A stretch of 39,632 nucleotides of DNA from Myxococcaceae bacterium (GTDB lineage: Bacteria > Myxococcota > Myxococcia > Myxococcales > Myxococcaceae): NCBI GenBank assembly GCA_016926755.1, contig JAFGNZ010000180.1, positions 1 through 39,632 of the forward strand, written 5' to 3'. The position numbers were made by a program, and so were the translations under genes. Positions 17,317 to 35,987 of this stretch are shown here, piece after piece. The stretch's first letter is position 1. Every line of letters starts with the position of its first letter. A model generated the notes under the pieces. The model saw only the letters and a program-made list of their open reading frames with translations. It did not search any database and was not told the DNA's origin.

Positions 17317-17580
17317 ATGTATCTGGGTCGCGTCCTCGGCACGGTGGTCTGCGAGCGCAAGTACGAGGGGCTCGAGGGCAAGCGTCTGCTCGTGGTCCAG
17401 CCGTTGGATCACAAGCGCGAGCCCTCGGGCAGCCCGGAGGTGGCCGTGGACACGGTGTCCGCGGGGCCCGGGGAGCTGGTGTACCTGGTGGGCAGCCGCG
17501 AGGCGGCGCTCGCGCTGGATCCGACGTTCGTGCCGGTGGATGCCGCCATCGTCGGCATCGTCGACGCGGTGGACGCATGA
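17317..17580 (+). CDS. EutN/CcmL-family microcompartment vertex protein (BMC-P), copy 1
   Basis: An 87-residue protein made entirely of one EutN/CcmL domain: YLGRVLGTVVCERKYEGLEG, then KRLLVVQPLD, AVDTVSAGPGELVYLVG and the closing AAIVGIVDAVD. The GK-LL-VQPLD and VD-x2-(G/S)AG-G-E-V signatures are typical. These proteins form pentamers that cap the vertices of icosahedral bacterial microcompartments. It begins 9 nt after the AgmX-like stop, and its stop overlaps the next start (ATGA). Usually BMC-P genes sit with BMC-H hexamer genes; none is present in this window, so the shell partner must be elsewhere or absent. Confidence 0.93.
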   Translation: MYLGRVLGTVVCERKYEGLEGKRLLVVQPLDHKREPSGSPEVAVDTVSAGPGELVYLVGSREAALALDPTFVPVDAAIVGIVDAVDA

Positions 17581-17846
17581 ACCTGTGCAAGGTGCTCGGC
17601 AGCATCACCTCCACCCTCAAGCACCCGGCCTTCGAGGGCCGGAAGCTGATGGTGGTGCAGCCGCTGGATGAGCGGCAGCAGCCCCTGGGCAAGAGCTTCA
17701 TCGCCGTGGATCACACCTCCTCGGCGGGGCCGGGGGACGTGGTGCTGGTGATGCGCGAGGGCAACGGCGTGCGGCAGCTGCTCGGGGACAAGACGCTGCC
17801 CATCCGCTCGGTGATCGTCGGCGTGGTGGACGAGGTGGACGCGTGA
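17577..17846 (+). CDS. EutN/CcmL-family microcompartment vertex protein (BMC-P), copy 2
   Basis: An 89-residue paralogue of the preceding gene, starting at ATG 17577 inside the ATGA overlap. It repeats the same framework (NLCKVLGSITSTLKHPAFEG, KLMVVQPLD, AVDHTSSAGPGDVVLVM, VIVGVVDEVD). It lacks the usual small-residue pattern of the pore loop (REGNGVRQLL where GSSAR is common), so the two copies probably differ at the pentamer pore. Tandem but diverged copies suggest mixed or alternative vertices, not simple gene dosage. Its stop overlaps the GTG start of the aldolase (GTGA), so translation is coupled. Confidence 0.92.
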   Translation: MNLCKVLGSITSTLKHPAFEGRKLMVVQPLDERQQPLGKSFIAVDHTSSAGPGDVVLVMREGNGVRQLLGDKTLPIRSVIVGVVDEVDA

Positions 17847-18511
17847 GCGAGGGCTTCATCCCGCTGCCCAAGCTGCGGGCGGAGGTGGTGAGCACCTCCC
17901 ACCGCATGCACCAGAACGGCTGGGTGGCCAACCACGACGGCAACATCTCCGTGCGCCTCAAGGGCGAGCGCTTCCTCATCACGTGCACGGCGGTGTCCAA
18001 GCGGGACATGGACGACGCGTCGCTGCTGGTCGTGGATGCTCAGGGCAAGGTGCTGGAGGGGCGCCGCAAGCCCTTCAGCGAGCTGGAGCTGCACCTGGCC
18101 GTCTACCGCGCGCGCCCGGAGGCCCGGGTGGTGCTGCACGCGCACCCGCCAGTGGCCACCGCCTTCGGGCTGGTGGGGCAGGAGCTGTCACCCATCGCGC
18201 TGCCGGAGATGGTGGTGTCCCTGGGCGATCGGGTGCCCACGCTGCCGCGCGCGATGCCGAGGGATCCCGAGGGCGTCAAGCGCGTGGAGGCGGCTGCCTC
18301 CGAGTACGACGCCTGGCTGCTGTCCGGCAACGGCGCCATCACTCTGGGCGAGGACCTGACGCAGGCGCTGCTGCGGATGGAGCTCGTCGAGCACTACGCG
18401 AAGATCCTCATGGCCGCGCGCTCGCTGGGGGCCATTCCGCCGCTGGCACCGGCGGACGTGCAGAAGCTGCTCGAGGCGCGCAAGAAGGCGGGCCTTGGAC
18501 CGCGGCGCTAG
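17843..18511 (+). CDS. Class II aldolase/adducin family protein (fuculose-phosphate aldolase-like)
   Basis: A 222-residue zinc-dependent aldolase starting at GTG 17843, coupled to the second shell gene. Catalytic features: Glu80 (PFSELELH), zinc ligands His99 and His101 (LHAHPP), and third His184 (VEHYAK). An N-terminal GNISVRL segment binds substrate phosphate. Family members split fuculose-1-phosphate or rhamnulose-1-phosphate to lactaldehyde, or ribulose-phosphate analogues. Class II aldolases are signature cargo of several microcompartment types. The C-terminal stretch (ADVQKLLEARKKAGL) is amphipathic and could serve as a targeting helix, but it is short and this is inference. The substrate is not fixed by sequence. 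Confidence 0.9.
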   Translation: MSEGFIPLPKLRAEVVSTSHRMHQNGWVANHDGNISVRLKGERFLITCTAVSKRDMDDASLLVVDAQGKVLEGRRKPFSELELHLAVYRARPEARVVLHAHPPVATAFGLVGQELSPIALPEMVVSLGDRVPTLPRAMPRDPEGVKRVEAAASEYDAWLLSGNGAITLGEDLTQALLRMELVEHYAKILMAARSLGAIPPLAPADVQKLLEARKKAGLGPRR

Positions 18512-19673
18512 CGTCTCGGGGCGGCTGCCTCGCACGGTGGTGGTGCTGGGCGTGGTGTCGCTGCTCACCGACGTGAGCAGCGAGATGATCTTCCCGCTGC
18601 TGCCGGCGTTCCTGGCCGCGCGCCTGCCGGCTGCGCCGCTGCTGCTGGGGGCCATGGAGGGGCTGGCGGATCTGGTGTCCGCGCTCCTCAAGTACCAGTC
18701 CGGCGTGTGGGCGGACCGGACGCGGCGCCTCAAGCCGCTGGTGCTGCTGGGCTACGGCGTGTCCAGCCTCGCGCGGCCGATGATGGCCTTCGTCACCGCC
18801 GTGTGGCAGCCGCTCCTCATCCGCTCGCTGGATCGGGTGGGCAAGGGCGTGCGCACCAGCCCGCGAGACGCGCTCATCGCGCACGCGGTGCCCGAGGGCG
18901 CGCGGGGCCGGGCCTTTGGCTTCCACCGGGGGATGGACCACGCGGGAGCGGCGCTCGGGGCGCTGGTGGCGATAGTGCTCGTCTCGGCCGGCTTGAAGGT
19001 GGAGCAGGTCTTCCTGGCGGCCGCGGTGCCGGGCCTGCTGGGCGTGCTGGCCCTCTTCCTGGCTCCCGAGCCGCCGCGCGAGCAGGGGCCGATCCACGCG
19101 GGCGTCACGTCGCAGGAGCCCGTGCCGGGGCGGCTGGCGTACTACCTGGTCCCGGTGGTCATCTTCGGGATCGCCAACTCCACGGACGCCTTCATCCTGC
19201 TGAAGCTGAGCGAGGAGGGGGCCGACCCCACGCTCCTGCCGCTCGCGTGGCTGATGCTGAATGCGGTGAAGGCAGCGGTCTCGTATCCCGCGGGCTGGCT
19301 CGCGGACCGGCTGGGCGCGGCGCGGCTGGTGATGGCCGGGTGGCTGCTCTACGCGCTGAGCTACGTGGCGCTCTCGCGCGTGCATGGGGTGACGGGCACG
19401 CTCGTCGTCATGGGCGTGTACGGGCTGTACTACGCGCTCTCCGAGGGCGCGCAGCGCTCGCTGCTCACCTCGCTGGTGCCGGTGGAGGCGCGCGGGCGCG
19501 CCTTCGGCCTGTACAACGGTCTGACGGGTGGGGCCTCGCTCGCGGCGGGGCTGCTCTTCGGAGGGGTGTGGACGCAGTGGGGCAGCTCGGTGGCCTTCGT
19601 CACCGCGGGCATCCTCGCGGCGCTCGGCGTGGCGCTGCTCGTGCTGCTGCTGCCGCGCGCCCGTGCGTCATGA
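18495..19673 (+). CDS. MFS permease
   Basis: A 392-residue major facilitator with about 12 membrane helices. Start TTG 18495 lies inside the aldolase gene (17-nt overlap) with AAGGCGGG upstream, implying coupled translation; a later GTG at 18537 is the alternative. It has the LTDVSSEMIFPLLPAFL signature near the first helix and the loop motif GVWADRTRR between helices 2 and 3. The RVGKGVRTSPRDALIA block seen in a broad, poorly characterised MFS group is also present. The substrate is unknown. Its place as the last gene after two shell proteins and an aldolase suggests transport of the aldolase substrate or product, but this is context only. Confidence 0.88.
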   Translation: MDRGASVSGRLPRTVVVLGVVSLLTDVSSEMIFPLLPAFLAARLPAAPLLLGAMEGLADLVSALLKYQSGVWADRTRRLKPLVLLGYGVSSLARPMMAFVTAVWQPLLIRSLDRVGKGVRTSPRDALIAHAVPEGARGRAFGFHRGMDHAGAALGALVAIVLVSAGLKVEQVFLAAAVPGLLGVLALFLAPEPPREQGPIHAGVTSQEPVPGRLAYYLVPVVIFGIANSTDAFILLKLSEEGADPTLLPLAWLMLNAVKAAVSYPAGWLADRLGAARLVMAGWLLYALSYVALSRVHGVTGTLVVMGVYGLYYALSEGAQRSLLTSLVPVEARGRAFGLYNGLTGGASLAAGLLFGGVWTQWGSSVAFVTAGILAALGVALLVLLLPRARAS

Positions 19674-19686
19674 ATGGAGGCAGTAC

Positions 19687-21072: not shown

Positions 21073-21161
21073 CAGGAGGCTGTCAAGGGTGGCGCACTGG
21101 CTTGCTCGGCCTGTCCGACAACCCTACCGGTTCGTGCAAAGTCGTCTCGGTGTCGAGCAGG

Positions 21162-21398
21162 TCAAAGCTCGAAGTCGCCGGGTGGGGGCTTCTTCGCCGC
21201 GGCCCGCTGGCGGGCCTGGCGCACCTGCTCGCGCAGCGCCTCGGTGGCCTCTGCGTCCACCTGGCCCGTCTCCAGATCGATGACGTCTCCCTCGCGCGCC
21301 TCCGCGGGCAGCTCGGCGCGGGGCCGGGTGAGCTGGCGGCCGTCGACGATCAGCACGGCCAGCTCGTCCTCGAAGCGATCCACCGTGGCCTTGGACAT
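21162..21398 (-). CDS. DUF3006-domain protein
   Basis: A 78-residue protein with the DUF3006 pattern: TVDRFEDELAVLIVDG, then a PAEAREGDVIDL strand, followed by a charged helix. DUF3006 genes are often found beside ComEC-like metallo-beta-lactamase-fold genes, exactly as here (10 nt downstream of one). It is therefore probably the last member of this three-gene minus-strand operon. The biochemical role is unknown. Confidence 0.85.
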   Translation of the reverse strand: MSKATVDRFEDELAVLIVDGRQLTRPRAELPAEAREGDVIDLETGQVDAEATEALREQVRQARQRAAAKKPPPGDFEL

Positions 21399-21408
21399 GA
21401 GGGGCTCC

Positions 21409-22770
21409 TCAGGGATTGCAGCAGTGGGCAGGTTTGCGCTGCTTCAAGGCCTCGTCGCGTGAGGTGTACGTGATGAGGTTCTCTGGGAAGATCCTCTTCA
21501 CGCTGGGGCAGTCCTCTCTGTGGAAGATCGGGCGATTTCGGCTGGCGTAGTATTTCACGCCACTCGCCGCGGGCTGCTTCTTCGCGGTGCGCGCCCCACG
21601 CTCATTGCCGCTCCTGGAGGGGGGCTCCTCCACCTGCTTGGAGCGCGAGAGGTCGATGTCACTCTCCGCCTTCACGCCCGCGGTCTTCGTGGGCACGGCC
21701 CCCGGGGGCTCCTGTTGCGCGATGGCGGGAGGCGGGGCGATCGGGAGGAAGGGTGGCAGGTCCTCCTCGGCGGAATCGAAGACATGCTGGGTGTTGGACG
21801 GCTCTCCGGGGGCCAGCCGCTGGGTGGTGAGCACGAACCGCTTGCCGTCGCTCAGCGCGTGCACCTCGCCGGCCTCGTCCGTGCGGAAGATCCGGGCATG
21901 CGCCGCGTTCAGACGCTCCAGCGTGGCCTGGGCCGGCATGCCCAGCGTCGTGCTCGCCCCAGCGCTGATGATGGCGGCCCTCGGGCGCACCCTCTGGAGG
22001 AACTCCGGCGTCGTCCCGGTCTCCGCGCCGTGGGCGCCCACCTTGAGCAGCGTGGAGCCCAGCTCCGCGCTCCTGTTCAATAGCGCGGCCTCCGTCTCCA
22101 ACCGCGCGTCGCCCGCGAAGAGCACCGACGTCTCTCCATGGGTGAGCCGCAGGACGATGGAGTTGGCCTCGTGCTGGGCCTGCCTCGTCTCCCTGGGGCC
22201 CTCTAGAAGCAGCGGCTCGCTTGGCGCGCGCGGCCACAGGACGGTCAGCTCCGCCCCGCCGCCCAGCGGCAGGCGCAGATGCTCCTCGGGCTGTGAGGGG
22301 TTGGGGGCGGGCGAGAAGATCTCCACCCCTCGCGAGCCGATGGACGTGAGCAGGGCGTCATACTCGGAGGAAGCCTCGGGGAGCTGCGGCTCCAGGAGCC
22401 GGCGGGGAGCCGCCACCTTCTGCACCGCGTCCAGCGCGCCATAGTGGTCCGCCGCCGGGTGGGTGAGGACGACGAGATCCAACGGCCTGGCGAGCAGCTC
22501 CGGGAGCCGGTTGACGAGGTGGTTCGCGGCCGAGGCCGGGCCCGTGTCCACCAGCACGGTCCTCCCCTCGGGCGAGACGATGAGCGCGGCGTCACCCTGG
22601 CCCACGTCGAGGAAGTAGACGTGGAGCTTTCCGTCCGGCCGGTCCCCCAGGTAGTGCTGCGCCGAGGCGGCGGGGCCAGGGGCCGGAGGCGGTGAGGGCG
22701 TGGGGCGGGGTGGCTCCTTGCACGCGGCGGCGAGGAGCAGGCCCAGCAGGGGCAGCAGACGCACGTTCAT
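21409..22770 (-). CDS. ComEC-like MBL-fold lipoprotein with altered metal motif and Ada-like Zn tail
   Basis: A 453-residue protein with a lipoprotein signal (MNVRLLPLLGLLLAAAC, lipid Cys17). The metallo-beta-lactamase domain spans about 45-300 (VYFLDVGQGDAALIVSPEG, VLVDTGP). The key HxHxDH motif reads HPAADH, so the second zinc His is Ala, while GDARLETEAALL and GAHGAETGTTPEF keep later ligands. ComEC-type MBL domains cut one DNA strand during uptake; loss of this His may reduce or alter activity. The last about 45 residues form an Ada-type zinc-binding module (FHREDCPSVKRI...YTSRDEAL...CCNP). Its start overlaps the stop of the upstream paralogue (22767-22770). Confidence 0.88.
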   Translation of the reverse strand: MNVRLLPLLGLLLAAACKEPPRPTPSPPPAPGPAASAQHYLGDRPDGKLHVYFLDVGQGDAALIVSPEGRTVLVDTGPASAANHLVNRLPELLARPLDLVVLTHPAADHYGALDAVQKVAAPRRLLEPQLPEASSEYDALLTSIGSRGVEIFSPAPNPSQPEEHLRLPLGGGAELTVLWPRAPSEPLLLEGPRETRQAQHEANSIVLRLTHGETSVLFAGDARLETEAALLNRSAELGSTLLKVGAHGAETGTTPEFLQRVRPRAAIISAGASTTLGMPAQATLERLNAAHARIFRTDEAGEVHALSDGKRFVLTTQRLAPGEPSNTQHVFDSAEEDLPPFLPIAPPPAIAQQEPPGAVPTKTAGVKAESDIDLSRSKQVEEPPSRSGNERGARTAKKQPAASGVKYYASRNRPIFHREDCPSVKRIFPENLITYTSRDEALKQRKPAHCCNP

Positions 22771-24011
22771 GGGTTGCAGTCCTTGGCGGGACGGCGCTCG
22801 CGGGCGGCGGTGGCGCGGCTCGTATACACCTTGCGCTCCTGGGTCTTCGCCCGCTTGAGCACGGAGCAGTCCTCCCGGTGGAAGACATCGCTGTCCTTGA
22901 GGCTCACGAAGCGCAGGGCGCTCGAGGGAGGCTCGGCGGCGGGCCGCGCGCTGGGGACCGGGGTGGGCGGCCGATACCCGGCGGGCACCGCCTCACGGCC
23001 GGCACGCGCAGAGATAGCGGGAGCGGGGGCGCTCGCGGACGCCACGGAGGCGCTGGCGCTCGCGGGGGCTGGAGCAGGCCCTCCCTCACCTGGGACGACC
23101 AGCGGCGCGGTGTCCCCCTTTTCGGCCTGGAGGGTGACGGTGTTCCCGTCGCTCACGGCCTGGATCTCTCCGTCCTGGTCCGTGCGGAACACGCGCGCGC
23201 CCGCGGCCGCGAGTCGCTCGAGCGCCTCCGGGGTAGGGTGGCCGTACTCGTTGCGCTCGGCGCAGGAGATGACCGCGGCCTTGGGCCTCACCGCCGCCAG
23301 GAAGGCCTCCGTGGAGGAGTGCTTCCCACCGTGGTGCGCCACCTTCAGCACTGTGGAGGTGTAGTCCACCGGGTAGCGGAGCAGGGCCGCCTCGGTGTCC
23401 GGCTCCGCGTCGCCCGTGAAGAAGAAGGCTGTCCGGCCGTAGGTGAGCCGGGTGACGATGGAGTTCGAGTTCGCGTCCGAGCGGGTGCTCTTCAGGAACG
23501 GCTCCAGAGGGGAGCGGGGCCAGTAGATGGTGAGGACGGCGCCCTCGCCCAGGCCCACGGTGAGGAAGCTGTCCGGCGCCTGGGAGTTCGGCTCGGCGGT
23601 CATCACCTGGCCGACCTCCCTGCCCATGAACTCGAGCAGATCGCGGTACGCGGCGCTCGGGTGGTCGAAGCCGGGATCCATGTAGCGCCGGGCCCCCACC
23701 GCCTGGATGGCGTCCCTCATGCTCCCGAGGTGATCCAGGTGCGGGTGGGTGAGGATGACGAGATCCAGCGGCCCCCGGACGAGCTGGCGGAGCCGGCTCG
23801 CCAGCCGCTCTCCGGCCTCGGGAGGGCCACCGTCGATGAGCACCGTCTTCCCAGCGGGCGAGACGATGAGCGCGGCGTCGCCCTGGCCCACGTCGAAGAA
23901 ATGCACGGTGAGCGGCCTGGCCGTGGAGGGAGGAGCCGCGGAAGGCTGCGCCAGGGCCCGCGAGGCTGTGAGGAGGAGGGCGAGGAGGCTGAGCAGCCGG
24001 GGGAGGACCAT
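22767..24011 (-). CDS. ComEC-like MBL-fold secreted protein with Ada-like Zn tail (intact metal motif)
   Basis: A 414-residue paralogue of the downstream gene. Start at ATG 24011 (GTG 24014 is adjacent and possible), opening a Sec signal peptide cleaved near SRALAQ. The MBL domain (about 35-290) has FFDVGQGDAALIVSP, VLIDGG, the complete HxHxDH (THPHLDHLG), GDAEPDTEAALL and AHHGGKHSSTEAF. This is the full ComEC/Rec2-like site, so hydrolase activity (probably DNA or another phosphodiester) is likely. A Pro/Ala/Ser-rich linker leads to the C-terminal Ada-like Zn module (FHREDCSVLKRA...DCNP). It lacks the channel helices of true ComEC, so it is a free nuclease-like enzyme outside the cytoplasm. 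It diverges from deoC. Confidence 0.9.
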   Translation of the reverse strand: MVLPRLLSLLALLLTASRALAQPSAAPPSTARPLTVHFFDVGQGDAALIVSPAGKTVLIDGGPPEAGERLASRLRQLVRGPLDLVILTHPHLDHLGSMRDAIQAVGARRYMDPGFDHPSAAYRDLLEFMGREVGQVMTAEPNSQAPDSFLTVGLGEGAVLTIYWPRSPLEPFLKSTRSDANSNSIVTRLTYGRTAFFFTGDAEPDTEAALLRYPVDYTSTVLKVAHHGGKHSSTEAFLAAVRPKAAVISCAERNEYGHPTPEALERLAAAGARVFRTDQDGEIQAVSDGNTVTLQAEKGDTAPLVVPGEGGPAPAPASASASVASASAPAPAISARAGREAVPAGYRPPTPVPSARPAAEPPSSALRFVSLKDSDVFHREDCSVLKRAKTQERKVYTSRATAARERRPAKDCNP

Positions 24012-24121
24012 CACGGAGCGACTCTAGCGCCTGCCACCCCCTGTGAGGCAGCCGGCGAGCGCCAGGAGCCCTTCGTCCGAATGCTTCCCGAGGGGCCCCC
24101 ATCTGGGCTACATCCGAAGCC

Positions 24122-25063
24122 ATGGCTCAGGCAGATGACATGAACCAGGTCGTCGACGAGATCGCTGACCGTGTCCGCCGCAGGATGCAAGCTCTCCGAG
24201 CAGGCAAGGAAGAACCCTGTACCGCCTCTCCCGGGCCTGGCGCCCGTGAGGCCAGCGAGACCGGAACGGGCAACAACGCCACGGGCTCTCGGGAGTGTGC
24301 GCCTTCCTGCGACGTGTGCCCCAACGTGTCCAGCTGCGGCACGGTGGCCGCGGTGAAGAACGGCGCGGCCCGGCTCTCCCCGGAGTCCATCCGCACCAGC
24401 GCGGACATCGCGCCGTACATCGACCACACGCTGCTCAAGCCCGAGGCCAGCCGCGACGAGGTCATCAAGCTGGCGGAGGAGGCGAGGAAGCACGGCTTCG
24501 CCACGGTGTGCGTGAACTCGGTGAACGTGGCGCTGGCCGCGCGGGTGCTGGCTGGCTCCAGGACGGTCCCCATCGCGGTGGTGGGCTTCCCGCTCGGGGC
24601 GGCGCTGCCCTCCGCCAAGGCCTTCGAGGCGCGCGAGGCCATCCGCTGCGGCGCGAAGGAGATCGACATGGTGATCAACATCGGCGCGCTGAAGGCCCGG
24701 GACTACGCGCTGGTGCTCAAGGACATCTCCATGGTGGTGGAGGCCAGCCGCCCGCACGGCGTCAAGGTCATCCTGGAGACCAGCCAGCTCACCCACGAGG
24801 AGAAGATCGCCGGCTGCGTGCTCTCCAAGGCCGCGGGGGCCTCCTTCGTGAAGACGTCCACCGGCTTCAGCTCCGGCGGCGCCACCGCCGAGGACGTGGC
24901 GCTGATGCGCAAGGTGGTGGGGGACGACGTGGGGGTGAAGGCCTCCGGCGGCGTGCGCTCCGCCGAGGACGCGATGAAGATGATCCAGGCGGGCGCCAAC
25001 CGCATCGGCGCCTCCGCCTCCGTGGCCATCATCACCGGCCAGAAGTCCACCGCGAAGTACTGA
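24122..25063 (+). CDS. deoC: Deoxyribose-phosphate aldolase with N-terminal targeting-like helix and four-Cys motif
   Basis: A 313-residue class I aldolase that splits 2-deoxyribose 5-phosphate into acetaldehyde and glyceraldehyde 3-phosphate. The catalytic domain begins near 98 ([11 protein letters not shown]) and carries the Schiff-base Lys244 (VKTSTGF) and assisting Lys273 (VKASGGVR). Ordinary DeoC is about 220 residues; this one has about 95 extra at the N-terminus. Residues 7-24 ([18 protein letters not shown]) form an amphipathic helix like microcompartment encapsulation peptides. A Gly/Pro/Thr linker follows, then Cys59-x3-Cys63-x2-Cys66-x5-Cys72, a metal or Fe-S type spacing. The gene starts an operon with a DksA/TraR protein and a phosphomutase. 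The helix and Cys functions are inference. Confidence 0.95.
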
Positions 25064-25528: not shown

Positions 25529-27283
25529 ATGAGCAACACCGGGCTGAGGGAGCAGGCGGAGGCGTGGCGGAGAGCCGATCCGGACCCCACCACGGCGGAG
25601 GAGCTGGCGCGGGTGCTGGCCGCTGGGGATCTGGCGGACCTGGCGGATCGCTTCGCGGGCAACCTGGAGTTCGGCACCGCGGGCCTGCGAGGCGTGCTGG
25701 GCGCGGGGCCCAACCGGATGAACCGGGCGGTGGTGCGCCGCACCACGGCGGGGCTGGCGCGCTACCTCAAGGCCCAGGTCCCGGACGTCGCCTCGCGCGG
25801 CGTGGTGGTGGGCAGGGATGGGCGGCGGATGAGCGCCGAGTTCGCCGAGGACACCGCCTGCGTGCTCGCCGCGGAGGGCATCCCCGCGCTCGTCTTCTCC
25901 ACGCTGGCCCCCACGCCGCTGACGGCCTTCGCCGCGCTGCACCTGGAGGCCGCCGCCGCGGTGATGGTCACCGCCAGCCACAACCCACCCGAGTACAACG
26001 GCTACAAGGTCTACTGGGGCAACGGCGCGCAGATCATCCCTCCCCATGACAAGGGGATCGCCGCCGCCATCGACGCGGTGGAGCCGGCCAACCAGGTGCG
26101 GCTGCTCACCCCCGCCGAGGCCCGCCAGCAGGGCCTGTGGCGGGAGCTCGGGGCGGAGGTGGGGGAGGCCTACCTGAAGGCCATCCTCCGGCTGCGGAAG
26201 TACGCGCGCGGCTCGGACACGCTCTCCATCATCTATACCGCCATGCACGGCGTGGGCGGCGTGTGGATGGAGCGGGCCATGAAGGCCGCGGGCTTCCCGC
26301 GCTTCTTCCCCGTGGCCGAGCAGCAGCAGCCGGACGGCGCCTTCCCCACCGTGCGCTTCCCCAACCCCGAGGAGCCCGGCGCGATGGATCTCTCCAGCGC
26401 CGCCGCCGAGCGCGAGAAGGCCGAGCTGGTGCTGGCCAATGATCCGGACGCGGACCGGCTCGCGGTGATGGTGCGCGGCGCGGAGGGCCGGCTGCGCATG
26501 CTCACCGGCAACGAGGTGGGCGTGCTGCTGGGCCACTACCTGCTCACCCAGGGCACCCAGCTGGTCCGCCCCTACGTGGCCACCACCATCGTCTCCTCGG
26601 TGCAGCTCGGGCAGATCGCCCAGGAGCTCGGCGCCGCCTACGACGAGGTCCTCACCGGCTTCAAGTGGATCGCCAACCGCGCGCTGGAGCGCGAGCAGGG
26701 CGAGAGCCTCCAGTTCGTCTTCGGCTACGAGGAGGCGCTCGGCTACACCGTGGGCAGGGTGGTGCGCGACAAGGACGGCATCAGCGCGGCGCTGGTGTTC
26801 GCCGACCTGGCGGCGTGGTGCCAGTCCCGCGGGGCGACGGTGCTCGGCTACCTGGAGGAGATCCAGCGCCGGCATGGCCTCTTCGTCGGAGCGCAGCGCA
26901 ACTTCACCTTCAAGGGCGCCGAGGGCGCGCAGACCATCTCGCGCATCATGGAGGCCTTCCGCCGCGAGCCCCCGAGGCGCGTGGGCGAGCACCCCGTCCA
27001 GCGCACCAAGGACTACAAGACGGGCGAGGCCCGCACGGGCGACAAGGTGGAGCGGCTCACCCTGCCGCCCTCGAACGTCCTCGCCTACGAGCTGGAGGGC
27101 GGCGGCCGCGTCACCCTCCGGCCCTCGGGCACCGAGCCCAAGATCAAGTACTACTTCGAGCTGAAGGAGCAGCTGCGCTCCGGTGAGCCGATGGCCCAGG
27201 CTCGCGCGCGGGCGGAGGGGCGCCTCGAGAAGCTCATCGACGCCTTCGTGGCGCTCGCGCGTGATCGCGGGCAGCCCGCCTGA
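25529..27283 (+). CDS. Phospho-sugar mutase of the PGM2/PgcA type, candidate phosphopentomutase
   Basis: A 584-residue alpha-D-phosphohexomutase-superfamily enzyme starting at ATG 25529. Motifs in order: TASHNP with phosphoserine Ser150, metal loop DPDADR (305-310), substrate loop YEEALGY (from about 400) and phosphate-binding RPSGTEPK (531-538). Length and sequence fit the PgcA/PGM2 group, whose members interconvert glucose 1- and 6-phosphate or, in human PGM2, act chiefly as phosphopentomutase. In an operon with deoC, and with deoA about 6 kb away, moving phosphate from deoxyribose 1- to 5-phosphate is the simplest role. A general phosphoglucomutase role remains possible. Confidence 0.92.
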   Translation: MSNTGLREQAEAWRRADPDPTTAEELARVLAAGDLADLADRFAGNLEFGTAGLRGVLGAGPNRMNRAVVRRTTAGLARYLKAQVPDVASRGVVVGRDGRRMSAEFAEDTACVLAAEGIPALVFSTLAPTPLTAFAALHLEAAAAVMVTASHNPPEYNGYKVYWGNGAQIIPPHDKGIAAAIDAVEPANQVRLLTPAEARQQGLWRELGAEVGEAYLKAILRLRKYARGSDTLSIIYTAMHGVGGVWMERAMKAAGFPRFFPVAEQQQPDGAFPTVRFPNPEEPGAMDLSSAAAEREKAELVLANDPDADRLAVMVRGAEGRLRMLTGNEVGVLLGHYLLTQGTQLVRPYVATTIVSSVQLGQIAQELGAAYDEVLTGFKWIANRALEREQGESLQFVFGYEEALGYTVGRVVRDKDGISAALVFADLAAWCQSRGATVLGYLEEIQRRHGLFVGAQRNFTFKGAEGAQTISRIMEAFRREPPRRVGEHPVQRTKDYKTGEARTGDKVERLTLPPSNVLAYELEGGGRVTLRPSGTEPKIKYYFELKEQLRSGEPMAQARARAEGRLEKLIDAFVALARDRGQPA

Positions 27284-28028: not shown

Positions 28029-28589
28029 CTACCAGGAGACCACCGGCTCGGCCGGCAGCTCCACCGTGAAGATGTTGCCGCCCATGGGCCGGTTCCTCAC
28101 CGTCAGCCGGGCGCCGAGCGTCTCCGCGCGCTCCATGGCCGCCTGCATCGCGTCCTCGACGATGACGCTGGCCCCGGTGTCCTGCACCCGCAGGCGCGGG
28201 CCGTAGTCACCGAACGCGTCCGCCGGCTCCACGATGACCCGGAGGACGTGGGGCCGGTCCGCCAGCGCCCTCATCGCCGCGGCCGCGGTGGCCACCATGT
28301 GCTCGATCACCTGCGCGAACTGGCGGCGGGGCAGATCCACCTGCAGCCGCTCCTGCGGCAGGTGGTAGTGGATGTCCACGCCGTCCAGCCGGCCCTCGGT
28401 GAGCATCTGCGCCACCACGTCCTGCGCCAGCTCGCTCAGATCCAGCGGCAGCGTCTCTCGCAGGTAGGCGTCCAGCGAGACGACGTTGTCCGAGTCCGAC
28501 TCGGAGCGCGAGAGGTTCGTCCCTGAGGTGTCGTTCTCTACCGACAGGGTCTTGCGAGCGGTTGCCGTGGTCGCCGTTCTCGCCATCAT
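28029..28589 (-). CDS. Degenerate GHKL (histidine-kinase-type) ATPase-domain protein
   Basis: A 186-residue protein; start ATG 28589, with GGAGG 6 nt upstream (ATG 28586 is next). Residues about 1-45 are Thr/Ala/Ser-rich and basic; the rest has the layout of an HATPase_c domain. QFAQVIEHMVATAAAAM sits where the N-box QVFxNLLxNAxxA should be, but the Mg-binding Asn is missing. A G1-like VQDTGAS follows, without clear G2 or F boxes, and the ending GGNIFTVELP matches the final strand. It therefore looks like a kinase ATPase fold that cannot hydrolyse ATP normally: a pseudokinase-like binding partner or a decayed regulator. It converges on the barrel gene (3 nt gap). Confidence 0.75.
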   Translation of the reverse strand: MMARTATTATARKTLSVENDTSGTNLSRSESDSDNVVSLDAYLRETLPLDLSELAQDVVAQMLTEGRLDGVDIHYHLPQERLQVDLPRRQFAQVIEHMVATAAAAMRALADRPHVLRVIVEPADAFGDYGPRLRVQDTGASVIVEDAMQAAMERAETLGARLTVRNRPMGGNIFTVELPAEPVVSW

Positions 28590-28703
28590 CGCGCTGCCTC
28601 CACTTCGGGCTGCCCGTCCCGCGTCCGGGCAGAAGAAGTTCCGCACCGTATAATCCCATCTGCTAGATGCGTGCCTACTTTTCTGACCCGACGGCTTTTG
28701 TCG

Positions 28704-28734
28704 TTCTGGGGACAGCGGAAAATTTTCCCCAGAA
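28704..28734. other. Inverted repeat with nested palindrome in the intergenic region
   Basis: TTCTGGGG (28704-28711) and CCCCAGAA (28727-28734) form a perfect 8-bp inverted repeat. It overlaps GGAAAATTTTCC (28717-28728), a perfect 12-bp palindrome. The surrounding gap 28590-28871 (282 bp) is more AT-rich than the genes and shows no credible ORF; GACCCGGGTC near 28836 is another palindrome. The gap lies between the end of the ABC operon and the GHKL-like gene, both on the minus strand, so operator or terminator roles are both possible. Confidence 0.5.
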
Positions 28735-28871
28735 ATAATCGGGACTTGGCACTATCCTACACCAGAGCAGGGTAGGAAGGGAAGCCTTGGGAAACGAGAA
28801 GGGTGGGTCAGATTTGAATCCTGGTCTTTCTTGACCCGGGTCTTTTCCGACTCTCGCCGTCAGGTGGGCTT

Positions 28872-29801
28872 CTAGCGGGATTCCTGTTCGTAGGGCGTGC
28901 CGAGCGCGGCGGGGGCGCTGCTGCGCTGGCCCTGGACGGCCAGGAGGATGAGCGTGAGGAGGTAGGGCAGGGCGAGCAGGAAGCCCTGGGGGATGAACTC
29001 GAGGATGCCGGGGGCGCTGGAGGCCAGGCCGATGCGCAGGGCGTTGCCGAAAGCGAAGAAGGAGGCGGCCCCGAAGGCGCCCAGAGGCGTCCACCGGCCA
29101 AACACCATGGCGGCCAGGGCCATGAAGCCCAGGCCGGCGGGGGTGTGCTGCTCGAAGCGATCCAGCACCGCGGTGGACAGCACCGCGCCCCCCAGCCCCG
29201 CCAGCAGGCCTCCGCCGAGCACCGCCCCCCAGCGCAGCCCCTGCACGCTCAGCCCCAGCGTGGCCACCGCGTGCGGCTTCTCTCCCACGGCGCGCAGCCG
29301 CAGGCCGATGGGGGTGTGGGTGAGCACCGCGTGGAAGACGAAGGGCAGCACCAGCGCCAGGTACGTCATCCCCGAGTGCTCCGAGAGGGCGCCCAGCAGG
29401 GGCACCCCATGGATCAGCGGCAGCGTCCACCGGGGGAGCTGCTCGATGGCGGGCGTGCCGTTGGGGCTGTAGAGCGACTCCAGGAGGAAGGTGCCGCCCG
29501 CCAGGGCCACCAGGTTGATGGCCATGCCGGACACCACCTGATCCGAGCGCCAGCGGATGCTCAGGTAGCCGTGGATCGCGGCCAGCCCCGCGCCCGCCAG
29601 CATCCCCAGCACCACCCCCAGGGGGGTGGGCATGAACAGGGCCGCCACCGCCGCGCAGAAGGCGCCCGCGCGCATCTGTCCCTCCACGCCTACGTTCACC
29701 ACGCCGGCGCGCTCGGAGAGCACCCCGCCCAGGGCGGCGAAGATGAGCGCGGGGGCCGCGTCCAGGGTGGAGAACAGGAGCGCCTCGAGGAGTTCAAGCA
29801 C
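28872..29801 (-). CDS. BMP-type (nucleoside) ABC transporter permease 2
   Basis: A 309-residue inner-membrane protein starting at GTG 29801, overlapping the upstream permease by 8 nt. About 8-9 hydrophobic helices. It carries the BPD_transp_2 signatures PALIFAALGGVLSERAGVVNVGVEGQM near the N-terminus and HTPIGLRLRAVGEKPHA later, as in the second permease of BMP-type importers (YufQ/NupQ-like). It would form half of the channel for nucleosides with the neighbouring permease, powered by the ATPase upstream. It is the last gene of a four-gene operon (lipoprotein, ATPase, permease, permease). Confidence 0.92.
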   Translation of the reverse strand: MLELLEALLFSTLDAAPALIFAALGGVLSERAGVVNVGVEGQMRAGAFCAAVAALFMPTPLGVVLGMLAGAGLAAIHGYLSIRWRSDQVVSGMAINLVALAGGTFLLESLYSPNGTPAIEQLPRWTLPLIHGVPLLGALSEHSGMTYLALVLPFVFHAVLTHTPIGLRLRAVGEKPHAVATLGLSVQGLRWGAVLGGGLLAGLGGAVLSTAVLDRFEQHTPAGLGFMALAAMVFGRWTPLGAFGAASFFAFGNALRIGLASSAPGILEFIPQGFLLALPYLLTLILLAVQGQRSSAPAALGTPYEQESR

Positions 29802-30898
29802 GGGGCACCTCGGCGGAGGCAGGCTGGGTCCGGCGCCTGCGCAGCAGCGCCAGCCACACCAGGCGGCCCGCCACGAAGAGCAGCGCCAGGCCCTGGATGA
29901 GCTCCGGGAAGCTCTTGTGCACGCCCAAGAGCTGCATCCGCGTGCCGCCGGCGCGCAGGGCGCCGAAGAAGAGCGCGGTGATCGTCACGCCCAGCGGGTT
30001 GTTGTTGCCGATCAGCGAGATGGCGATGCCGTCGAAGCCATAGGGCGCCCCGAGCACGCCGGGGTAGCGGAACTCGGTGCCCAGCACCAGCACCGCGCCG
30101 GCCAGCCCCGCCAGCGCGCCAGCCAGCCCCATGGCCTCGGCCATGCGCTGCTTGACGGGGATGCCGGCGGCGCGCGCCGCCTCGGGGCCCAGGCCGGCGG
30201 CGCGCGTCTCGAAGCCTCGCCGCGTCCGGATCAGCCACGCCCAGACGAACGCCGCCACCGCCAGCGCCATGGGGAAGCCCAGGTTCATCCGGGAGATGTC
30301 GCCCAGCAGCCGGGGCAGGTGCGCGGTGGGGAAGATCTCCGCGGTGCCGGAGACGGAGTGGCCGCCGGTAACCGTCGGGCGCAGCGGGCCCACCACGAGC
30401 CAGTTGTCCACCAGCGTCACCGCCACCCAGTTGAGCATGATGGTGGAGATGACCTCGTGGACGCCGCGCCACAGCTTGAGGGCCGCGGCGATGAGCGCCC
30501 ACAGCGCCCCCGCGACGGCGGCGGCCAGCAGCGCCAGGGGGAGGTGCAGGAGGGCGTGCGCGGAGAGCTGCGCGCCCACCACCGCCGCCGCCAGCGCGCC
30601 CACCACCATCTGCCCCTGCGCGCCGATGTTGAACAGGCCGGCCTTGAAGGCCACCGCCACCGACAGGCCCGTGAGGATCAGCAGGGCGGCCTTGCTCGCG
30701 GCCTCGCCCAGCGGCCGGACGATGACCGCGAGGTCTCCGCCGTCCAGGTACCGGGGCCACTGGCCGATGCCGCCATAGAGCATCTGCAGGTAGGCATTGC
30801 TGGCGACCTCCGTGTCCCGCGTGAGCGCGATGGCGATCCAGCACACCACCAGCGCGAGCGCCACGGAGAGGATGGACGGGACCGCCGCGCGCCAGCGC

Positions 30899-30906
<8 letters not shown>
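29794..30906 (-). CDS. BMP-type (nucleoside) ABC transporter permease 1
   Basis: A 370-residue inner-membrane protein with about 9-10 hydrophobic helices; ATG 30906 overlaps the ATPase stop by 8 nt. The family signature FKAGLFNIGAQGQMVVGAL lies near residue 90 (BPD_transp_2), and TRRGFETRAAGLGPEAARAAGIP matches the cytoplasmic coupling loop. It pairs with the downstream permease as the YufP/NupP-like partner. Compared with permease 2 it has an added N-terminal helix and a periplasmic loop with Trp and Tyr. Substrate inferred from the BMP lipoprotein and deoA next door: purine or pyrimidine (deoxy)nucleosides. Confidence 0.92.
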
Positions 30907-32409
<1,503 letters not shown>

Positions 32410-32413
<4 letters not shown>

Positions 32414-33618
32414 GGCGTGGCTTGGAAGGCGGCGAACTCGTCCATGGTGCCCGGGACCTTGAGCTCCCCGGAGTTGATGCGCTGGCGCAGCGCCTCCACC
32501 TTCTGCAGCGCCTCGGCCTTGCCCGGGAAGTCCAAGCGCACCTCGGCGTAGCCCACGCCGCCCTCCTTCAGGCCCAGCACCACATCACCCGCGGCGAACT
32601 TGCCCTCGGTCAGGTCGCGGCACGCGTGGTAGATGGCCAGGTCCACGTGCTTGAGCATGGAGGTGAGCACCACCTCGGGCGCCACGTGCGACTGGTCCGA
32701 GTCCACGCCGATGACCCACACCTGCTTGCCGGCCGCGCGCGCCTCCTTCACCGCCTGGATGACGCCCAGGCCGTCCGCGCCCGCCGCCTGGAAGATGACG
32801 TCCACGCCCTTCTTCAGCAGATCCTGCGCCACCTGCTTGCCGGCCGCCACGTTGTCGAAGCTGCCGGTGTACACGGCCACCAGGCCCGGCGCGGCCTTGG
32901 CGTTGGTGGTCTTCACGCCCGCGCGGTAGCCCGCCTCGAAGCGCTTGATGATGGGCACCTCCATGCCGCCCACGAAGCCCACCTTGCCCGTCTTGGACAC
33001 CAGGCCCGCCAGCGCGCCCACGAGGAAGCTGCCCTCGTTCTCCTTGAAGGTGACGGTGCGCACGTTGGGCAGGCTGTAGGGCTTGTTCTCCGCGTCGAGG
33101 ATCAGGCTGTCCACGAGGAGGAACTTGGCCTTGGGCTGCTTCTTGGCGGTGGCCTCCACCGCGCTCTCCAGCAGGAAGCCGTTGCCGATGGTGAGGTCCG
33201 AGCCCTGCTCCACGAGCAGATCCAGGTTGGGCTCATAGTCCTCCGGGGACTTGCTCTGGATCACCAGCGGCTCGACGTTCAGCGCGGTGATGGGCGGCTG
33301 CAGGTTGGCCAGGTCCTGGGTGATGGACTGCTTCACCTCCTCGGCGGAGGCGGGGGCGTACTTGCCACCCTCGTACCTCTTGCCCGCGGCCCAGGTCTCC
33401 AGGCCGCGCAGCGCGGCGTCATTGAAGGAGTGGTCGCCGCGGCCGCCCACGTCGATCACGAGGCCAATCTTGAGGGCCTTCGGGGCCGGGGGCTCGGCGG
33501 GCTTTGCCTCCGCCTGGGGCTGCTGCGCAGGGGCGGTGGGGGTAGGGGGTTCTTCCTTCTTGCAGGCGCCCAGGAGCGCCACAAGGGCCACGGTGGACAG
33601 GCGGAGGGTTCGGGTCAT
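32410..33618 (-). CDS. BMP-family substrate-binding lipoprotein (nucleoside importer)
   Basis: A 402-residue lipoprotein (signal MTRTLRLSTVALVALLGAC, lipid Cys19), then a Pro/Ala/Gln spacer and the binding domain from about 50. Features match basic-membrane-protein family nucleoside binders (PnrA-like): GLVIDVGGRGDHSFNDAAL at the N-lobe, with Asp and Phe placed as in purine-stacking sites. Further matches are IGNGFLLESAVEATAKKQP, GSFLVGALAGLVSKTGKVGFVGG and VIGVDSDQS. It captures extracytoplasmic nucleosides for the ATPase and two permeases that follow. It is transcribed divergently from deoA with only 58 bp between starts, so a shared regulatory region is likely. Confidence 0.94.
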
Positions 33619-33676
33619 GGGAGCGTATCTAGCAGATGATGGACCCGATGGAAGGGGTAGGCTATGGCCAGGAGCC

Positions 33677-34981
33677 GTGAGACCCTACGAACTCATCAAG
33701 GCCAAGCGGGACGGCCAGGCGTTGGATCCAGTCGCCATCCGGGAGTTCATCGCCGCGTTCACCCGGGGGGATGTGCCGGAGTACCAGATGTCCGCCATGT
33801 GCATGGCGGTGTACTTCAAGGGGCTGAGCCCGGCGGAGCTGGGGGCGTGGACGGACGCCATGCTCAAGTCCGGCGAGGTGCTGGATCTGTCCGAGACGCC
33901 TGGCACCAAGGTGGACAAGCACTCGACGGGCGGGGTGGGGGACAAGGTCTCCCTGAGCCTGGCGCCCCTGGCGGCGGCCTGCGGGGTGCCGGTGCCGATG
34001 ATCTCCGGCCGTGGGCTGGGGCACACCGGCGGGACGCTGGACAAGCTGGAGTCCATCCCCGGCTTCCGGGTGGATCTGTCGGTGGCGGACTACCGGCGGC
34101 TGGTGCGGGAGGTGGGCGCCTGCCTGATCGGCCAGACGGCGACGCTGGCTCCGGCGGACAAGAAGCTCTACGCGCTGCGGGATGTGACGGCGACGGTGGA
34201 CTGCCTGCCGCTCATCGCCAGCTCCATCATGAGCAAGAAGCTGGCGGAGGGCATCGACGCGCTCGTGCTGGACGTGAAGACGGGCAGCGGCGCCTTCATG
34301 AAGGAGCTGAAGGACTCGCGCGCCCTGGCGCGGACGATGATCGACATCGGCAAGGCGATGAACCGCAAGGTGACCGCGCTGCTGACGGACATGGATCAGC
34401 CGCTGGGGCGCACGGTGGGCAACGCGCTGGAGGTGATCGAGGCGGTGGACATGCTCCGCGGCCAGGCCCCGGAGGACTACACGGAGGTGACGCTGGCGCT
34501 CACGGCGGAGATGCTCGTGCTGGGCGGCAAGGCGGCCACCGCGCAGGAGGCGCGGCAGCGGCTGACGCGCGCGGTGGAGGATGGCAGCGCGCTGCGCAAG
34601 CTGAAGGAGATCGTCCAGGCACAAGGGGGAGACCCGCGCGCCATCGACGACTACGCGCTGCTGCCCCAGGCCCGGGCCACGGCGGACGTGGTGGCGCCGG
34701 AGGGCGGCTTCGTCACGGGCATCGACACGGAGGCCGTGGGGCTGGCGGCGGTGGCGCTGGGGGCGGGGCGGCAGCGGGTGGACAGCCCCATTGATCCGGC
34801 GGTGGGCTTCACGCTGCTGCGCAAGGTGGGCGAGCCGGTGAAGGCTGGCGAGCCGGTGGTGCGCGTGCACTACAACGACGAGGGGCCCCTGAAGGACGTG
34901 AAGCAGCGGCTGCTCGTGGCGTATCGCTTCGGGCCGCGAGCTCCCGCGCCGCGCCCGCTCATCGTCGAACGGCTGGAGTAG
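33677..34981 (+). CDS. deoA: Thymidine/pyrimidine-nucleoside phosphorylase
   Basis: A 434-residue enzyme converting thymidine, deoxyuridine or uridine plus phosphate to base and (deoxy)ribose 1-phosphate. Start at GTG 33677, giving the family N-terminus RPYELIKAKRDGQAL; the AGGAG is close (2 nt), so initiation may be weak. Helical domain I first, then the phosphate-binding KHSTGGVGDK (from Lys81), the SGRGLGHTGGTLDKLE signature (family motif SGRxLGxTxGTxDKLE), and K-x-G-S-GAFMK (VKTGSGAFMKE). The C-terminal domain (about 340-434) is complete. The STGGVGDK and KTGSGAFM motifs are shared by thymidine and broader pyrimidine phosphorylases, so the exact base range is open. It is divergent from the nucleoside importer. 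Confidence 0.95.
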   Translation: MRPYELIKAKRDGQALDPVAIREFIAAFTRGDVPEYQMSAMCMAVYFKGLSPAELGAWTDAMLKSGEVLDLSETPGTKVDKHSTGGVGDKVSLSLAPLAAACGVPVPMISGRGLGHTGGTLDKLESIPGFRVDLSVADYRRLVREVGACLIGQTATLAPADKKLYALRDVTATVDCLPLIASSIMSKKLAEGIDALVLDVKTGSGAFMKELKDSRALARTMIDIGKAMNRKVTALLTDMDQPLGRTVGNALEVIEAVDMLRGQAPEDYTEVTLALTAEMLVLGGKAATAQEARQRLTRAVEDGSALRKLKEIVQAQGGDPRAIDDYALLPQARATADVVAPEGGFVTGIDTEAVGLAAVALGAGRQRVDSPIDPAVGFTLLRKVGEPVKAGEPVVRVHYNDEGPLKDVKQRLLVAYRFGPRAPAPRPLIVERLE

Positions 34982-35123
34982 TCCCCTCCCGAGCCCGGGC
35001 GCTTCCCGGAAAAGGCCGGATTACTCGGCCAGTGCGGATCCGACGAACACCGTGCGTGTCGGGAGTTCTTGAAGACGTGGGGGGTCTCGTGCGAGATCGC
35101 GCCGCCACCGGGAGGGGTGCCTC

Positions 35124-35987
35124 ATGACTCGCAAGTTGCTGTTTCTCGCCACGCTGATCTCCGTCTCGATGTTGCCGCTCAACGCCCACGCGGGCGTGTG
35201 GTTCGAGCTGCTCCACGCGCCCTGCTGGACGGGGGATGAGAACGACATCAAGCAGGACAACGGCGTCATCGGCCGCTACAGCGGCGCGATCGACTGCTTC
35301 AACAAGGACTTCAATGGAGGTGGGTCCCGCACCATCCTGTCGATCAAGGCGTTCCAGGCCTGGGAGTACGGGACAATGTTCCTGTATTACGACATCACCG
35401 GGCCCTTCAACAGCGCCGTCTCCGGTGACGCGAGCGACAACGAGCGGGGCGGCTTCTTCGGCGGCATCACGTTGACGGTGTCACCCAAGAAGATCGGCGA
35501 GAAGTTCGCGGGCCGGGAGTTCGACTGGGGCCCCATCGCCGACGTGCAGCTCAAGTACGAGGCGGAGCACGTCTCCAAGATCGGCATGCTCAACTACTAC
35601 GGCCTGCAGTGGGACCTGAAGGCCCCGTTCCTGGACTTCCTGTCCGTCACCACGGTGATCCGTGACGACTACGTGTTCAAGGGGATCGACTTCCAGGTGG
35701 GCGCGGCCTTCCAGAAGTCGTTCTCGCTGGCCAACCAGGATCTCATCTTCGCCGCCTTCCTCCAGGCGGGCCTCTTCGGTGAGGGTGACTCCAAGGTCGA
35801 AGGGTCACCCCCCGGCAACCAGTTCTTCATCACCCAGCCGCAGCTGCTCTGGGACGTGGCCAAGAACTTCGGCGCCACCCCGGGCAAGTTCTACCTCGGG
35901 CTCGAGTGGCAGGTCGCGTACAACCGCTACCTCATCGAGGACAAGACGGAGAACGTGCTCCAGGGCATGATCCGCTGGAACATCTGA
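35124..35987 (+). CDS. Tsx-like nucleoside channel of the outer membrane
   Basis: A 287-residue protein with a signal peptide (RKLLFLATLISVSMLPLNAHA). The mature chain is beta-strand rich and aromatic. It shows WEYGTMFLYYDITGPFN, which matches the Tsx-family stretch w-yGdnfff-Di, plus the FFGGITLTVSPKKIGEKF and WGPIADVQLKYE segments and the C-terminal MIRWNI strand. Tsx proteins are 12-stranded channels that pass nucleosides. Placement 142 nt after deoA and beside a nucleoside importer fits this role strongly. Assignment to the family is from pattern recognition, not an alignment. Its codons are less GC-extreme than its neighbours' (more a/t at third positions), consistent with high expression. 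Confidence 0.75.
   Translation: MTRKLLFLATLISVSMLPLNAHAGVWFELLHAPCWTGDENDIKQDNGVIGRYSGAIDCFNKDFNGGGSRTILSIKAFQAWEYGTMFLYYDITGPFNSAVSGDASDNERGGFFGGITLTVSPKKIGEKFAGREFDWGPIADVQLKYEAEHVSKIGMLNYYGLQWDLKAPFLDFLSVTTVIRDDYVFKGIDFQVGAAFQKSFSLANQDLIFAAFLQAGLFGEGDSKVEGSPPGNQFFITQPQLLWDVAKNFGATPGKFYLGLEWQVAYNRYLIEDKTENVLQGMIRWNI

What the first reader, a model, noticed from the sequence alone, without database searches (positions are those of the whole stretch)
17317..35987. Scattered nucleoside-to-acetaldehyde pathway with two microcompartment shell vertices
Tsx-like porin, BMP lipoprotein, ABC ATPase, two permeases, DeoA, a PGM2-type mutase and DeoC form a complete route from outside nucleosides to acetaldehyde plus glyceraldehyde 3-phosphate. 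Within about 6 kb upstream sit two EutN/CcmL pentamer genes with a class II aldolase and a permease. DeoC and class II aldolases are known cargo of Haliangium-type and some 'incomplete core' microcompartments. Whether this locus encodes a DNA/RNA-fed reduced compartment in a predatory myxobacterium is inference. No hexamer, aldehyde dehydrogenase or PduL gene is visible here.
Basis: partly seen in the sequence, partly recalled or inferred. Interest (0 to 1): 0.85.

Follow-up and report, generated by a model that had tools for sequence, protein, structure and literature searches.

The report
Myxobacterial DNA-sugar organelle, satellite operon
Next to genes for eating nucleosides, this myxobacterium carries two corner pieces of a protein-shelled organelle whose other shell genes lie elsewhere in the genome, and comparison with relatives suggests that the organelle encloses the enzyme that cuts DNA sugar into acetaldehyde, a use proposed before but not shown.

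Summary
The genes are real. Two EutN/CcmL pentamer genes and a class II aldolase form an overlapping operon 6.3 kb upstream of deoC in a nucleoside-salvage locus. The missing parts are elsewhere in the genome: BMC-H, two BMC-T, a third BMC-P and an aldehyde dehydrogenase on one contig, PduL (fused to acetate kinase) on another. The window therefore holds the BMC-P2/P3 satellite of a Haliangium-type (HO) microcompartment, not a reduced compartment. The 2021 BMC catalog already describes this satellite and suggests DeoC cargo and nucleic-acid catabolism for HO.

Added here: of 147 genomes of the class, 46 have the shell. All 42 of these with deoC carry a cysteine cluster in an N-terminal extension of DeoC; 93 of 96 shell-less deoC genes lack it (the 3 exceptions are one genus). 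Most shell-less relatives examined keep the salvage locus without the pentamer-aldolase genes. In two basal genomes pentamers, class II aldolase and deoC are contiguous; in a third about 0.8 kb intervenes. Against: the targeting-type helix persists in 53 of 61 shell-less genes of one clade, tree-supported contrasts number three, PduL is in only 15 of 46, and the Tsx call is unsupported.

The parts
17317..17580 (+). BMC-P2, EutN/CcmL shell pentamer
   Evidence: Pfam PF03319 E 3.4e-28; stop overlaps the next start by 4 bp
17577..17846 (+). BMC-P3, EutN/CcmL shell pentamer
   Evidence: Pfam PF03319 E 1.4e-24; stop overlaps the aldolase start by 4 bp (letters read)
17843..18511 (+). class II aldolase of the HO satellite; likely cargo, substrate unknown
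   Evidence: PF00596 E 1.6e-43; orthologues (51% identity or more) in 41 of 147 genomes, all 41 with the shell; the canonical third metal-ligand His is Asn
18495..19673 (+). MFS permease, overlaps the aldolase gene; kept in some shell-less relatives, so not specific to the shell
   Evidence: PF07690 E 2.1e-32; match kept in shell-less G094 and, partial, G047
24122..25063 (+). DeoC, deoxyribose-phosphate aldolase, with an N-terminal extension of about 95 residues
   Evidence: TIGR00126 E 1.4e-77 over residues 96-304; D182, K244, K273 among the invariant columns of 27 shell-positive DeoCs
24128..24199 (+). N-terminal helix of DeoC (residues 3-26), encapsulation-peptide-like
   Evidence: helix 3-26 in the AF2 model, residues 29-63 under pLDDT 50; best 14-residue hydrophobic moment 0.73
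24296..24337 (+). DeoC cysteine cluster C59-x3-C63-x2-C66-x5-C72
   Evidence: alignment of 32 shell-positive sequences: C59, C66, C72 invariant, C63 at 90% or more; positions checked
25529..27283 (+). phosphohexomutase-family enzyme, presumed phosphopentomutase
   Evidence: four PGM_PMM domains; specificity inferred
28872..29801 (-). ABC permease (BPD_transp_2), presumed nucleoside importer
   Evidence: PF02653 E 2.3e-35
29794..30906 (-). ABC permease (BPD_transp_2)
   Evidence: PF02653 E 2.6e-44
30899..32356 (-). ABC ATPase, two ABC domains
   Evidence: PF00005 E 2.3e-49, two stretches
32410..33618 (-). Bmp/PnrA-type substrate-binding lipoprotein
   Evidence: PF02608 E 4.9e-65
33620..34981 (+). 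DeoA, thymidine/pyrimidine-nucleoside phosphorylase (start not determined)
   Evidence: NF004490 E 1.2e-173, above its cut-off
21409..22770 (-). metallo-beta-lactamase-fold protein beside deoC, exported-looking; locus context, not shell-linked
   Evidence: PF00753 E 1.1e-14; found beside deoC in shell-less relatives
22767..24014 (-). second metallo-beta-lactamase-fold protein beside deoC; locus context
   Evidence: PF00753 E 2.4e-17; found beside deoC in all 14 shell-less loci printed

Best explanation
The window holds the satellite operon (BMC-P2, BMC-P3, class II aldolase) of an HO-type microcompartment, beside the locus that feeds it. [quoted passage not shown] The acylating-type AldDH of the main locus turns the confined acetaldehyde into acetyl-CoA. 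Shown here: gene content of the genome, co-occurrence, the DeoC extension, contiguity in basal genomes, and absence of the operon from an otherwise kept locus in shell-less relatives. Inferred: the substrates, entry of DeoC into the shell, and the flux.
For: BMC-H, two BMC-T proteins, BMC-P1 and AldDH on contig C322; BMC-H and one BMC-T hit the shell chains HO-5815 (E 6e-46) and HO-5816 (E 3.7e-78); AldDH scores above the cut-off of NCBIfam subfamily NF011927 (668.5 bits; 403) and, below their cut-offs, hits acetaldehyde-CoA dehydrogenase models. PF03319 in 46 of 147 genomes; PF00936 in the same 46 plus 2 low-complexity false hits. AldDH orthologue in 43 of 46 shell+ and 0 of 101 shell- genomes; class II aldolase orthologue in 41 of 46 and 0 of 101. 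DeoC Cys cluster in 42 of 42 shell+ deoC genes and 3 of 96 shell- ones (G146 read). In 14 shell-less loci printed none has P2, P3 or the aldolase, while 12 of 14 keep GYF, both MBL genes, deoC and the mutase gene in order (G047 lacks an MBL1 match; G042 lacks MBL1 and GYF matches in the stretch fetched). Four of them carry the window's genus code, and their DeoC lacks helix and cluster. P2-P3-aldolase-deoC contiguous in G039 and G040 (gaps under 60 bp), in G145 with about 0.8 kb before deoC and deoA after it; the same order in the named contigs L082 and L083.
Against: The amphipathic helix is kept in 53 of 61 shell-less DeoCs of one clade, so the helix alone does not prove targeting. The DeoC tree gives 5 label changes but only 3 on well-supported branches; the sign test cannot reach significance. 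The four shell-less genomes of the window's genus group on that tree with the other shell-less ones (99/97), so they are no separate loss there, and the genus code and the DeoC tree disagree. Three shell-less genomes (G140-142) have a helix plus an Asp/Cys-rich stretch. deoC and the pentamer pair are on one contig in 13 of 42 genomes, within 6.3 kb in 10. PduL is in 15 of 46 shell+ genomes, and in the window's genome it is a fusion with acetate kinase whose frame shows no EP-like helix at its start (by eye). deoC and deoA are present without the shell. Outside the class the Cys cluster is absent from 10 of 28 DeoCs near shell genes. Importer and mutase specificity unproven.
Confidence: 0.7

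Rival explanations
1. The compartment serves another substrate through the class II aldolase (for example 5-deoxyribulose 1-phosphate, which also gives acetaldehyde, or a 6-deoxyhexulose phosphate); DeoC is an ordinary cytosolic enzyme and a neighbour by history.
For: The aldolase is tied to the shell (41 of 46, 0 of 101) and sits in the pentamer operon; the top solved-structure hit is 6btd, an entry named once in PMC6079011, the paper on the 5-deoxyribose aldolase DrdA (occurrence counted, other passages read), though FucA chains score almost the same; nucleoside genes persist without the shell.
Against: It does not explain why the DeoC cysteine cluster follows the shell (42 of 42 against 3 of 96) or why deoC is contiguous with the pentamers in basal genomes. 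The metal-ligand His is Asn in 12 of 14 aligned rows, so its activity is open.
Confidence: 0.18
2. The N-terminal extension of DeoC is an oligomerisation or other element unrelated to the shell; its variation follows phylogeny.
For: The helix is kept in 53 of 61 shell-less DeoCs of one clade; only 3 supported contrasts; G140-142 have helix and Cys-rich stretch without PF03319 or PF00936 hits.
Against: In other phyla DeoCs encoded near shell genes often have a similar N-terminal helix (by eye), and 18 of 28 have at least 3 Cys within 25 residues, against 8 of 52 named loci without shell genes in the stretch held (two of the 8 belong to genomes known here to have the shell).
Confidence: 0.11
3. 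A free-standing reduced compartment made only of pentamers and aldolases, encoded in the window.
For: No hexamer gene found in the window.
Against: Hexamer, trimers, P1 and AldDH are in the same genome, and PF03319 and PF00936 occur in the same 46 of 147 genomes.
Confidence: 0.01

Closest known systems
HO-type microcompartment, type I with satellite (Haliangium ochraceum; PMC8217296, PMC4207490, passages read)
   Same: One BMC-H, a BMC-P triplet, BMC-T proteins, AldDH; satellite with two BMC-P and an aldolase
   Different: Two BMC-T here against three reported for H. ochraceum; deoC 6.3 kb from the satellite in a nucleoside locus, contiguous with it in some basal genomes
SPU (sugar phosphate utilization) microcompartments (PMC4207490, PMC8217296, passages read)
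   Same: DeoC plus AldDH with a shell; 18 of 28 named DeoCs near shell genes, several in SPU-like loci by gene content, have an N-terminal Cys cluster
   Different: Here deoC is not in the main locus; no RpiB among the Pfam hits of the genes scanned
DrdA 5-deoxyribulose-1-phosphate aldolase (PMC6079011, passages read)
   Same: Class II aldolase; best solved-structure match is 6btd, an entry that this paper names
   Different: Distant (E 6.6e-18, FucA nearly equal); the third metal-ligand His is replaced by Asn

Membership tests
HO-type BMC | three BMC-P genes | tested here: met
   one on C322, two in the window
HO-type BMC | satellite with two BMC-P and an aldolase (type I) | tested here: met
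   17317-18511
HO-type BMC | BMC-H and BMC-T similar to the H. ochraceum shell proteins | tested here: met
   HO-5815 E 6e-46; HO-5816 E 3.7e-78; the second BMC-T and P1 were not compared with solved chains
HO-type BMC | AldDH in the main locus, phylogenetically near SPU5/SPU7 | tested here: inconclusive
   AldDH between P1 and a BMC-T on C322; its position in the AldDH tree was not tested
HO-type BMC | assembled shell enclosing the enzymes | not testable with these tools
   needs microscopy or proteomics
SPU BMC | DeoC-type pfam01791 aldolase in the BMC locus | tested here: inconclusive
   deoC co-occurs and lies 6.3 kb from the satellite pentamers, but is not in the main locus
SPU BMC | RpiB (pfam02502) in the locus | tested here: inconclusive
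   not among the Pfam hits of the genes scanned on C267 and C322; genome not searched
Encapsulated cargo (EP) | amphipathic helix of about 15-20 residues joined by a flexible linker | tested here: met
   but the helix also persists without a shell
Encapsulated cargo (EP) | helix needed for entry into the shell | not testable with these tools
   loading assay needed

The most novel reading that the evidence does not exclude
Shell-linked DeoCs carry a distinct module, targeting-type helix plus a Cys cluster, in which the cluster (a possible Zn or Fe-S site) rather than the helix is the shell-dependent part, for example by tying DeoC to AldDH or the shell or by sensing redox state. Related clusters occur in DeoCs beside shell genes in Chloroflexota and other phyla. 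In shell-less members of the same family (Corallococcus among them) the helix would then be a fossil of a lost organelle, or have been put to a second use.
Probability: 0.3. Interest if true: 0.75.

Novelty: new member of a known kind. Interest (0 to 1): 0.58.

Why it matters
The H. [quoted passage not shown] Co-occurrence with a DeoC whose N-terminus is remodelled, contiguity with deoC in basal genomes, and absence of the operon from the kept locus of close shell-less relatives turn 'nucleic-acid catabolism' from a suggestion into a specific, testable claim, with shell-positive and shell-less species under one genus code as a ready comparison.

Tried and rejected
Reduced pentamer-only compartment: rejected, shell elsewhere in the genome. 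Possible BMC relics in shell-less G078 and G080: rejected as low-complexity matches. PduL as a shell marker: rejected, 15 of 46 shell+ and 4 of 101 shell- genomes. deoA as a marker: rejected, 135 of 147. Helix alone as a shell marker: rejected, kept in 53 of 61 shell-less DeoCs of one clade.

Count details. The 42 shell+ deoC genomes exclude 4 shell+ genomes without a deoC hit (G089, G134, G135, G041). The 42 of 42 is 40 by pattern plus G145 (4 Cys in other spacing), and G146, whose extension cut at the wrong place and which I read. Of the 96 shell-less genes, 3 match the Cys pattern (G140-142) and a fourth (G127) has 4 scattered Cys upstream. In one search, 3 of 42 have no pentamer pair found (G124, G006, G002), and G146 counts as a pair although its pentamers are apart. 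Named loci are the best 80 of 585 confirmed stretches, a capped list; at least five of them match contigs of G genomes by length (L073, L074, L075, L076, L085), so they are not independent of the class-wide set. In one search, 4 of the 52 loci without shell genes had no barrel anchor and count as 0 Cys. One search has 14 rows, two of them (L051, L075) the same sequence: Asn in 12 of 14 rows, 11 of 13 distinct. The structure alignment holds 22 sequences, the window's and 21 of the 80 named loci, chosen by eye. Genome lists and coordinates were typed by hand from tool outputs.

Errors of mine: two of 23 queries (GYF and the 19528 ORF) were cut out of frame; one search repeats that comparison in frame for 19 loci and its positions are the ones used. 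One search printed nothing because a wrong column was read; re-read the same table.

Papers. Passages found by term: PMC4207490, PMC8217296, PMC8346489, PMC6079011. No whole text was read; other papers were seen only in listings. Searches that might have shown a paper on a DeoC Cys cluster or on DeoC in microcompartments are; none of their listings shows one, but most listed papers were not opened and subscription journals are mostly not held.
Full report
Observation. The window is the whole of contig C267 of a 9.59 Mb draft genome in 409 contigs. It carries a short operon of overlapping genes: EutN/CcmL (17317-17580), EutN/CcmL (17577-17846), class II aldolase (17843-18511) and an MFS permease (18495-19673). 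Further on come two metallo-beta-lactamase-fold genes on the minus strand, deoC (24122-25063), a phosphohexomutase-family gene, a Bmp-type ABC importer on the minus strand and deoA. The 'Tsx-like porin' at 35124-35987 has no supporting hit.

The missing shell. PF00936 and PF03319 searches of the own genome find BMC-H, BMC-T domains and a third BMC-P on contig C322; Pfam scans show a BMC-T, BMC-H, BMC-P, AldDH and a second BMC-T in a row. BMC-H and the first BMC-T match shell chains HO-5815 and HO-5816. PduL is on contig C325, behind acetate kinase in one 599-residue frame.

Co-occurrence in the class. Of 147 genomes searched, 46 have PF03319 and the same 46 have PF00936, plus G078 and G080, whose weak matches are low-complexity frames. 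AldDH orthologues (E 1e-60 cut): 43 of 46 shell+, 0 of 101 shell-. Class II aldolase orthologues (51% identity or more): 41 of 46 and 0 of 101, although weaker paralogues (34-42%) occur in both groups. PduL: 15 of 46 and 4 of 101. DeoA: 135 of 147. deoC: 138 of 147, that is 42 of 46 shell+ and 96 of 101 shell-. The window's genus has no name here; by equal contig length G062 is Corallococcus llansteffanensis and G054 an uncultured Archangium bin, both under the window's family code.

The DeoC extension. N-termini of all 138 DeoCs were extracted. By my choice of start, 35 shell+ DeoCs have 83-104 residues before the barrel motif: an amphipathic helix, a linker and a Cys cluster (in the window C59, C63, C66, C72; C59, C66 and C72 invariant in the 32 sequences aligned). 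The cluster is found in 42 of 42 shell+ genes (40 by pattern and G145; G146 read) and in 3 of 96 shell- genes. Those three, G140-142, have a helix and an Asp/Cys-rich stretch of a different kind. An AlphaFold2 model (22 sequences) gives helix 3-26, residues 29-63 of very low confidence and a confident barrel. Residues D182, K244 and K273, which I take from recall of E. coli DeoC to be the catalytic ones, are invariant in an alignment of 27 shell+ DeoCs.

Shell-less relatives. Of 14 shell-less loci printed, none has P2, P3 or the class II aldolase, and 12 keep GYF gene, MBL, MBL, deoC and mutase gene in the window's order; G047 lacks a match to the first MBL, G042 to it and to GYF within the stretch fetched. 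In four genomes of the window's own genus code the GYF and MBL genes end about 260 bp apart; in G094 the MFS gene is still there, and the pentamer-aldolase genes alone are missing between GYF and MFS. In those four, DeoC has lost both helix and cluster. On the DeoC tree, however, these four group with the other shell-less genomes of the clade (99/97) and not with the shell-positive members of the genus, so they are no separate loss there. In 53 of 61 shell-less DeoCs of that clade an amphipathic helix remains, and in 0 of these 61 the cluster. So the helix alone is no marker of the shell; it may be a relic or have another use.

Linkage. deoC and the pentamers lie on one contig in 13 of 42 genomes, within 6.3 kb in 10; 3 of the 42 have no pentamer pair found, and the rest have them on other contigs, many of them short. 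In one of the 10, G146, the pentamers are part of a main-locus-like cluster. In G039 and G040 the order P2-P3-aldolase-deoC is contiguous; in G145 about 0.8 kb separates aldolase and deoC, and deoA follows. The named contigs L082 and L083 have the same order. In G084 the aldolase lies with deoC, about 22 kb from the pentamer pair. A tree of the DeoC barrel needs 5 changes of the shell label, 3 forced by supported branches; at the supported contrasts the cluster goes the same way in 2.8 of 3 on average with G140-142 counted as having it, never the other way, but three pairs cannot be significant. The Fisher p of 3e-32 ignores kinship and should not be taken at face value.

Outside the class. 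Of the 80 named loci kept (best of 585), 28 have shell genes in the stretch held; 18 of these 28 have at least 3 Cys within 25 residues in the DeoC extension, 10 do not (for example Neobacillus, one Paenibacillus, a Gemmatimonadetes bin). The cluster is thus frequent but not required, and its spacing differs.

The class II aldolase. In 12 of 14 aligned rows (11 of 13 distinct) the position of the third metal-ligand His of FucA (residue role recalled) is Asn; two retain His, and four (those two among them) end in an EP-like helix, by eye, that the window's protein lacks. The best solved-structure match is 6btd, an entry named in PMC6079011, whose DrdA aldolase makes acetaldehyde from 5-deoxyribulose 1-phosphate (passages); FucA scores nearly the same, so this is only a lead. 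If it were right, both aldolases would deliver acetaldehyde into one compartment.

Verdict. An HO-type microcompartment satellite beside a nucleoside-salvage locus: a new member of a known kind, with new, specific evidence for the published suggestion that HO compartments degrade nucleic-acid sugars, and one feature, the shell-linked Cys cluster of DeoC, that none of the listings and none of the passages read describes.

Noticed in passing
L230:8542-10338 (minus strand; own genome C325): Acetate kinase and PduL-type phosphotransacylase lie in one 599-residue frame; PTAC also occurs in 4 shell-less genomes of the class, in open frames of 602-626 residues.
   Followed up: partly
L199, L200, L201 (G141, G142, G140): DeoC N-terminus with helix and a long Asp/Cys-rich stretch in three small (about 3 Mb) genomes without shell hits.
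   Followed up: partly
window 17843-18511 and L052, L080, L082, L083: HO class II aldolase: third metal-ligand His replaced by Asn in 12 of 14 rows; EP-like C-terminal helix in four others that the window's protein lacks (by eye).
   Followed up: partly
window 21409-24014 (minus strand): Two exported-looking MBL-fold proteins with similar Cys/His-containing C-terminal tails beside deoC, present with and without the shell; the fold resembles the ComEC MBL domain (recall), so a role in extracellular DNA use is possible.
   Followed up: no
window 28029-28646 (minus strand): Small protein between the importer and the mutase genes, well conserved under the window's genus code and weakly elsewhere, with only sub-threshold Pfam matches (HATPase_c E 0.04).
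   Followed up: no
   Followed up: partly
G000, G081, G082 against G077-G080 (same genus code): The DeoC barrel tree places the shell-less members of the genus with other shell-less genera: the genus code and the gene tree disagree, by gene exchange, tree error or grouping.
   Followed up: no
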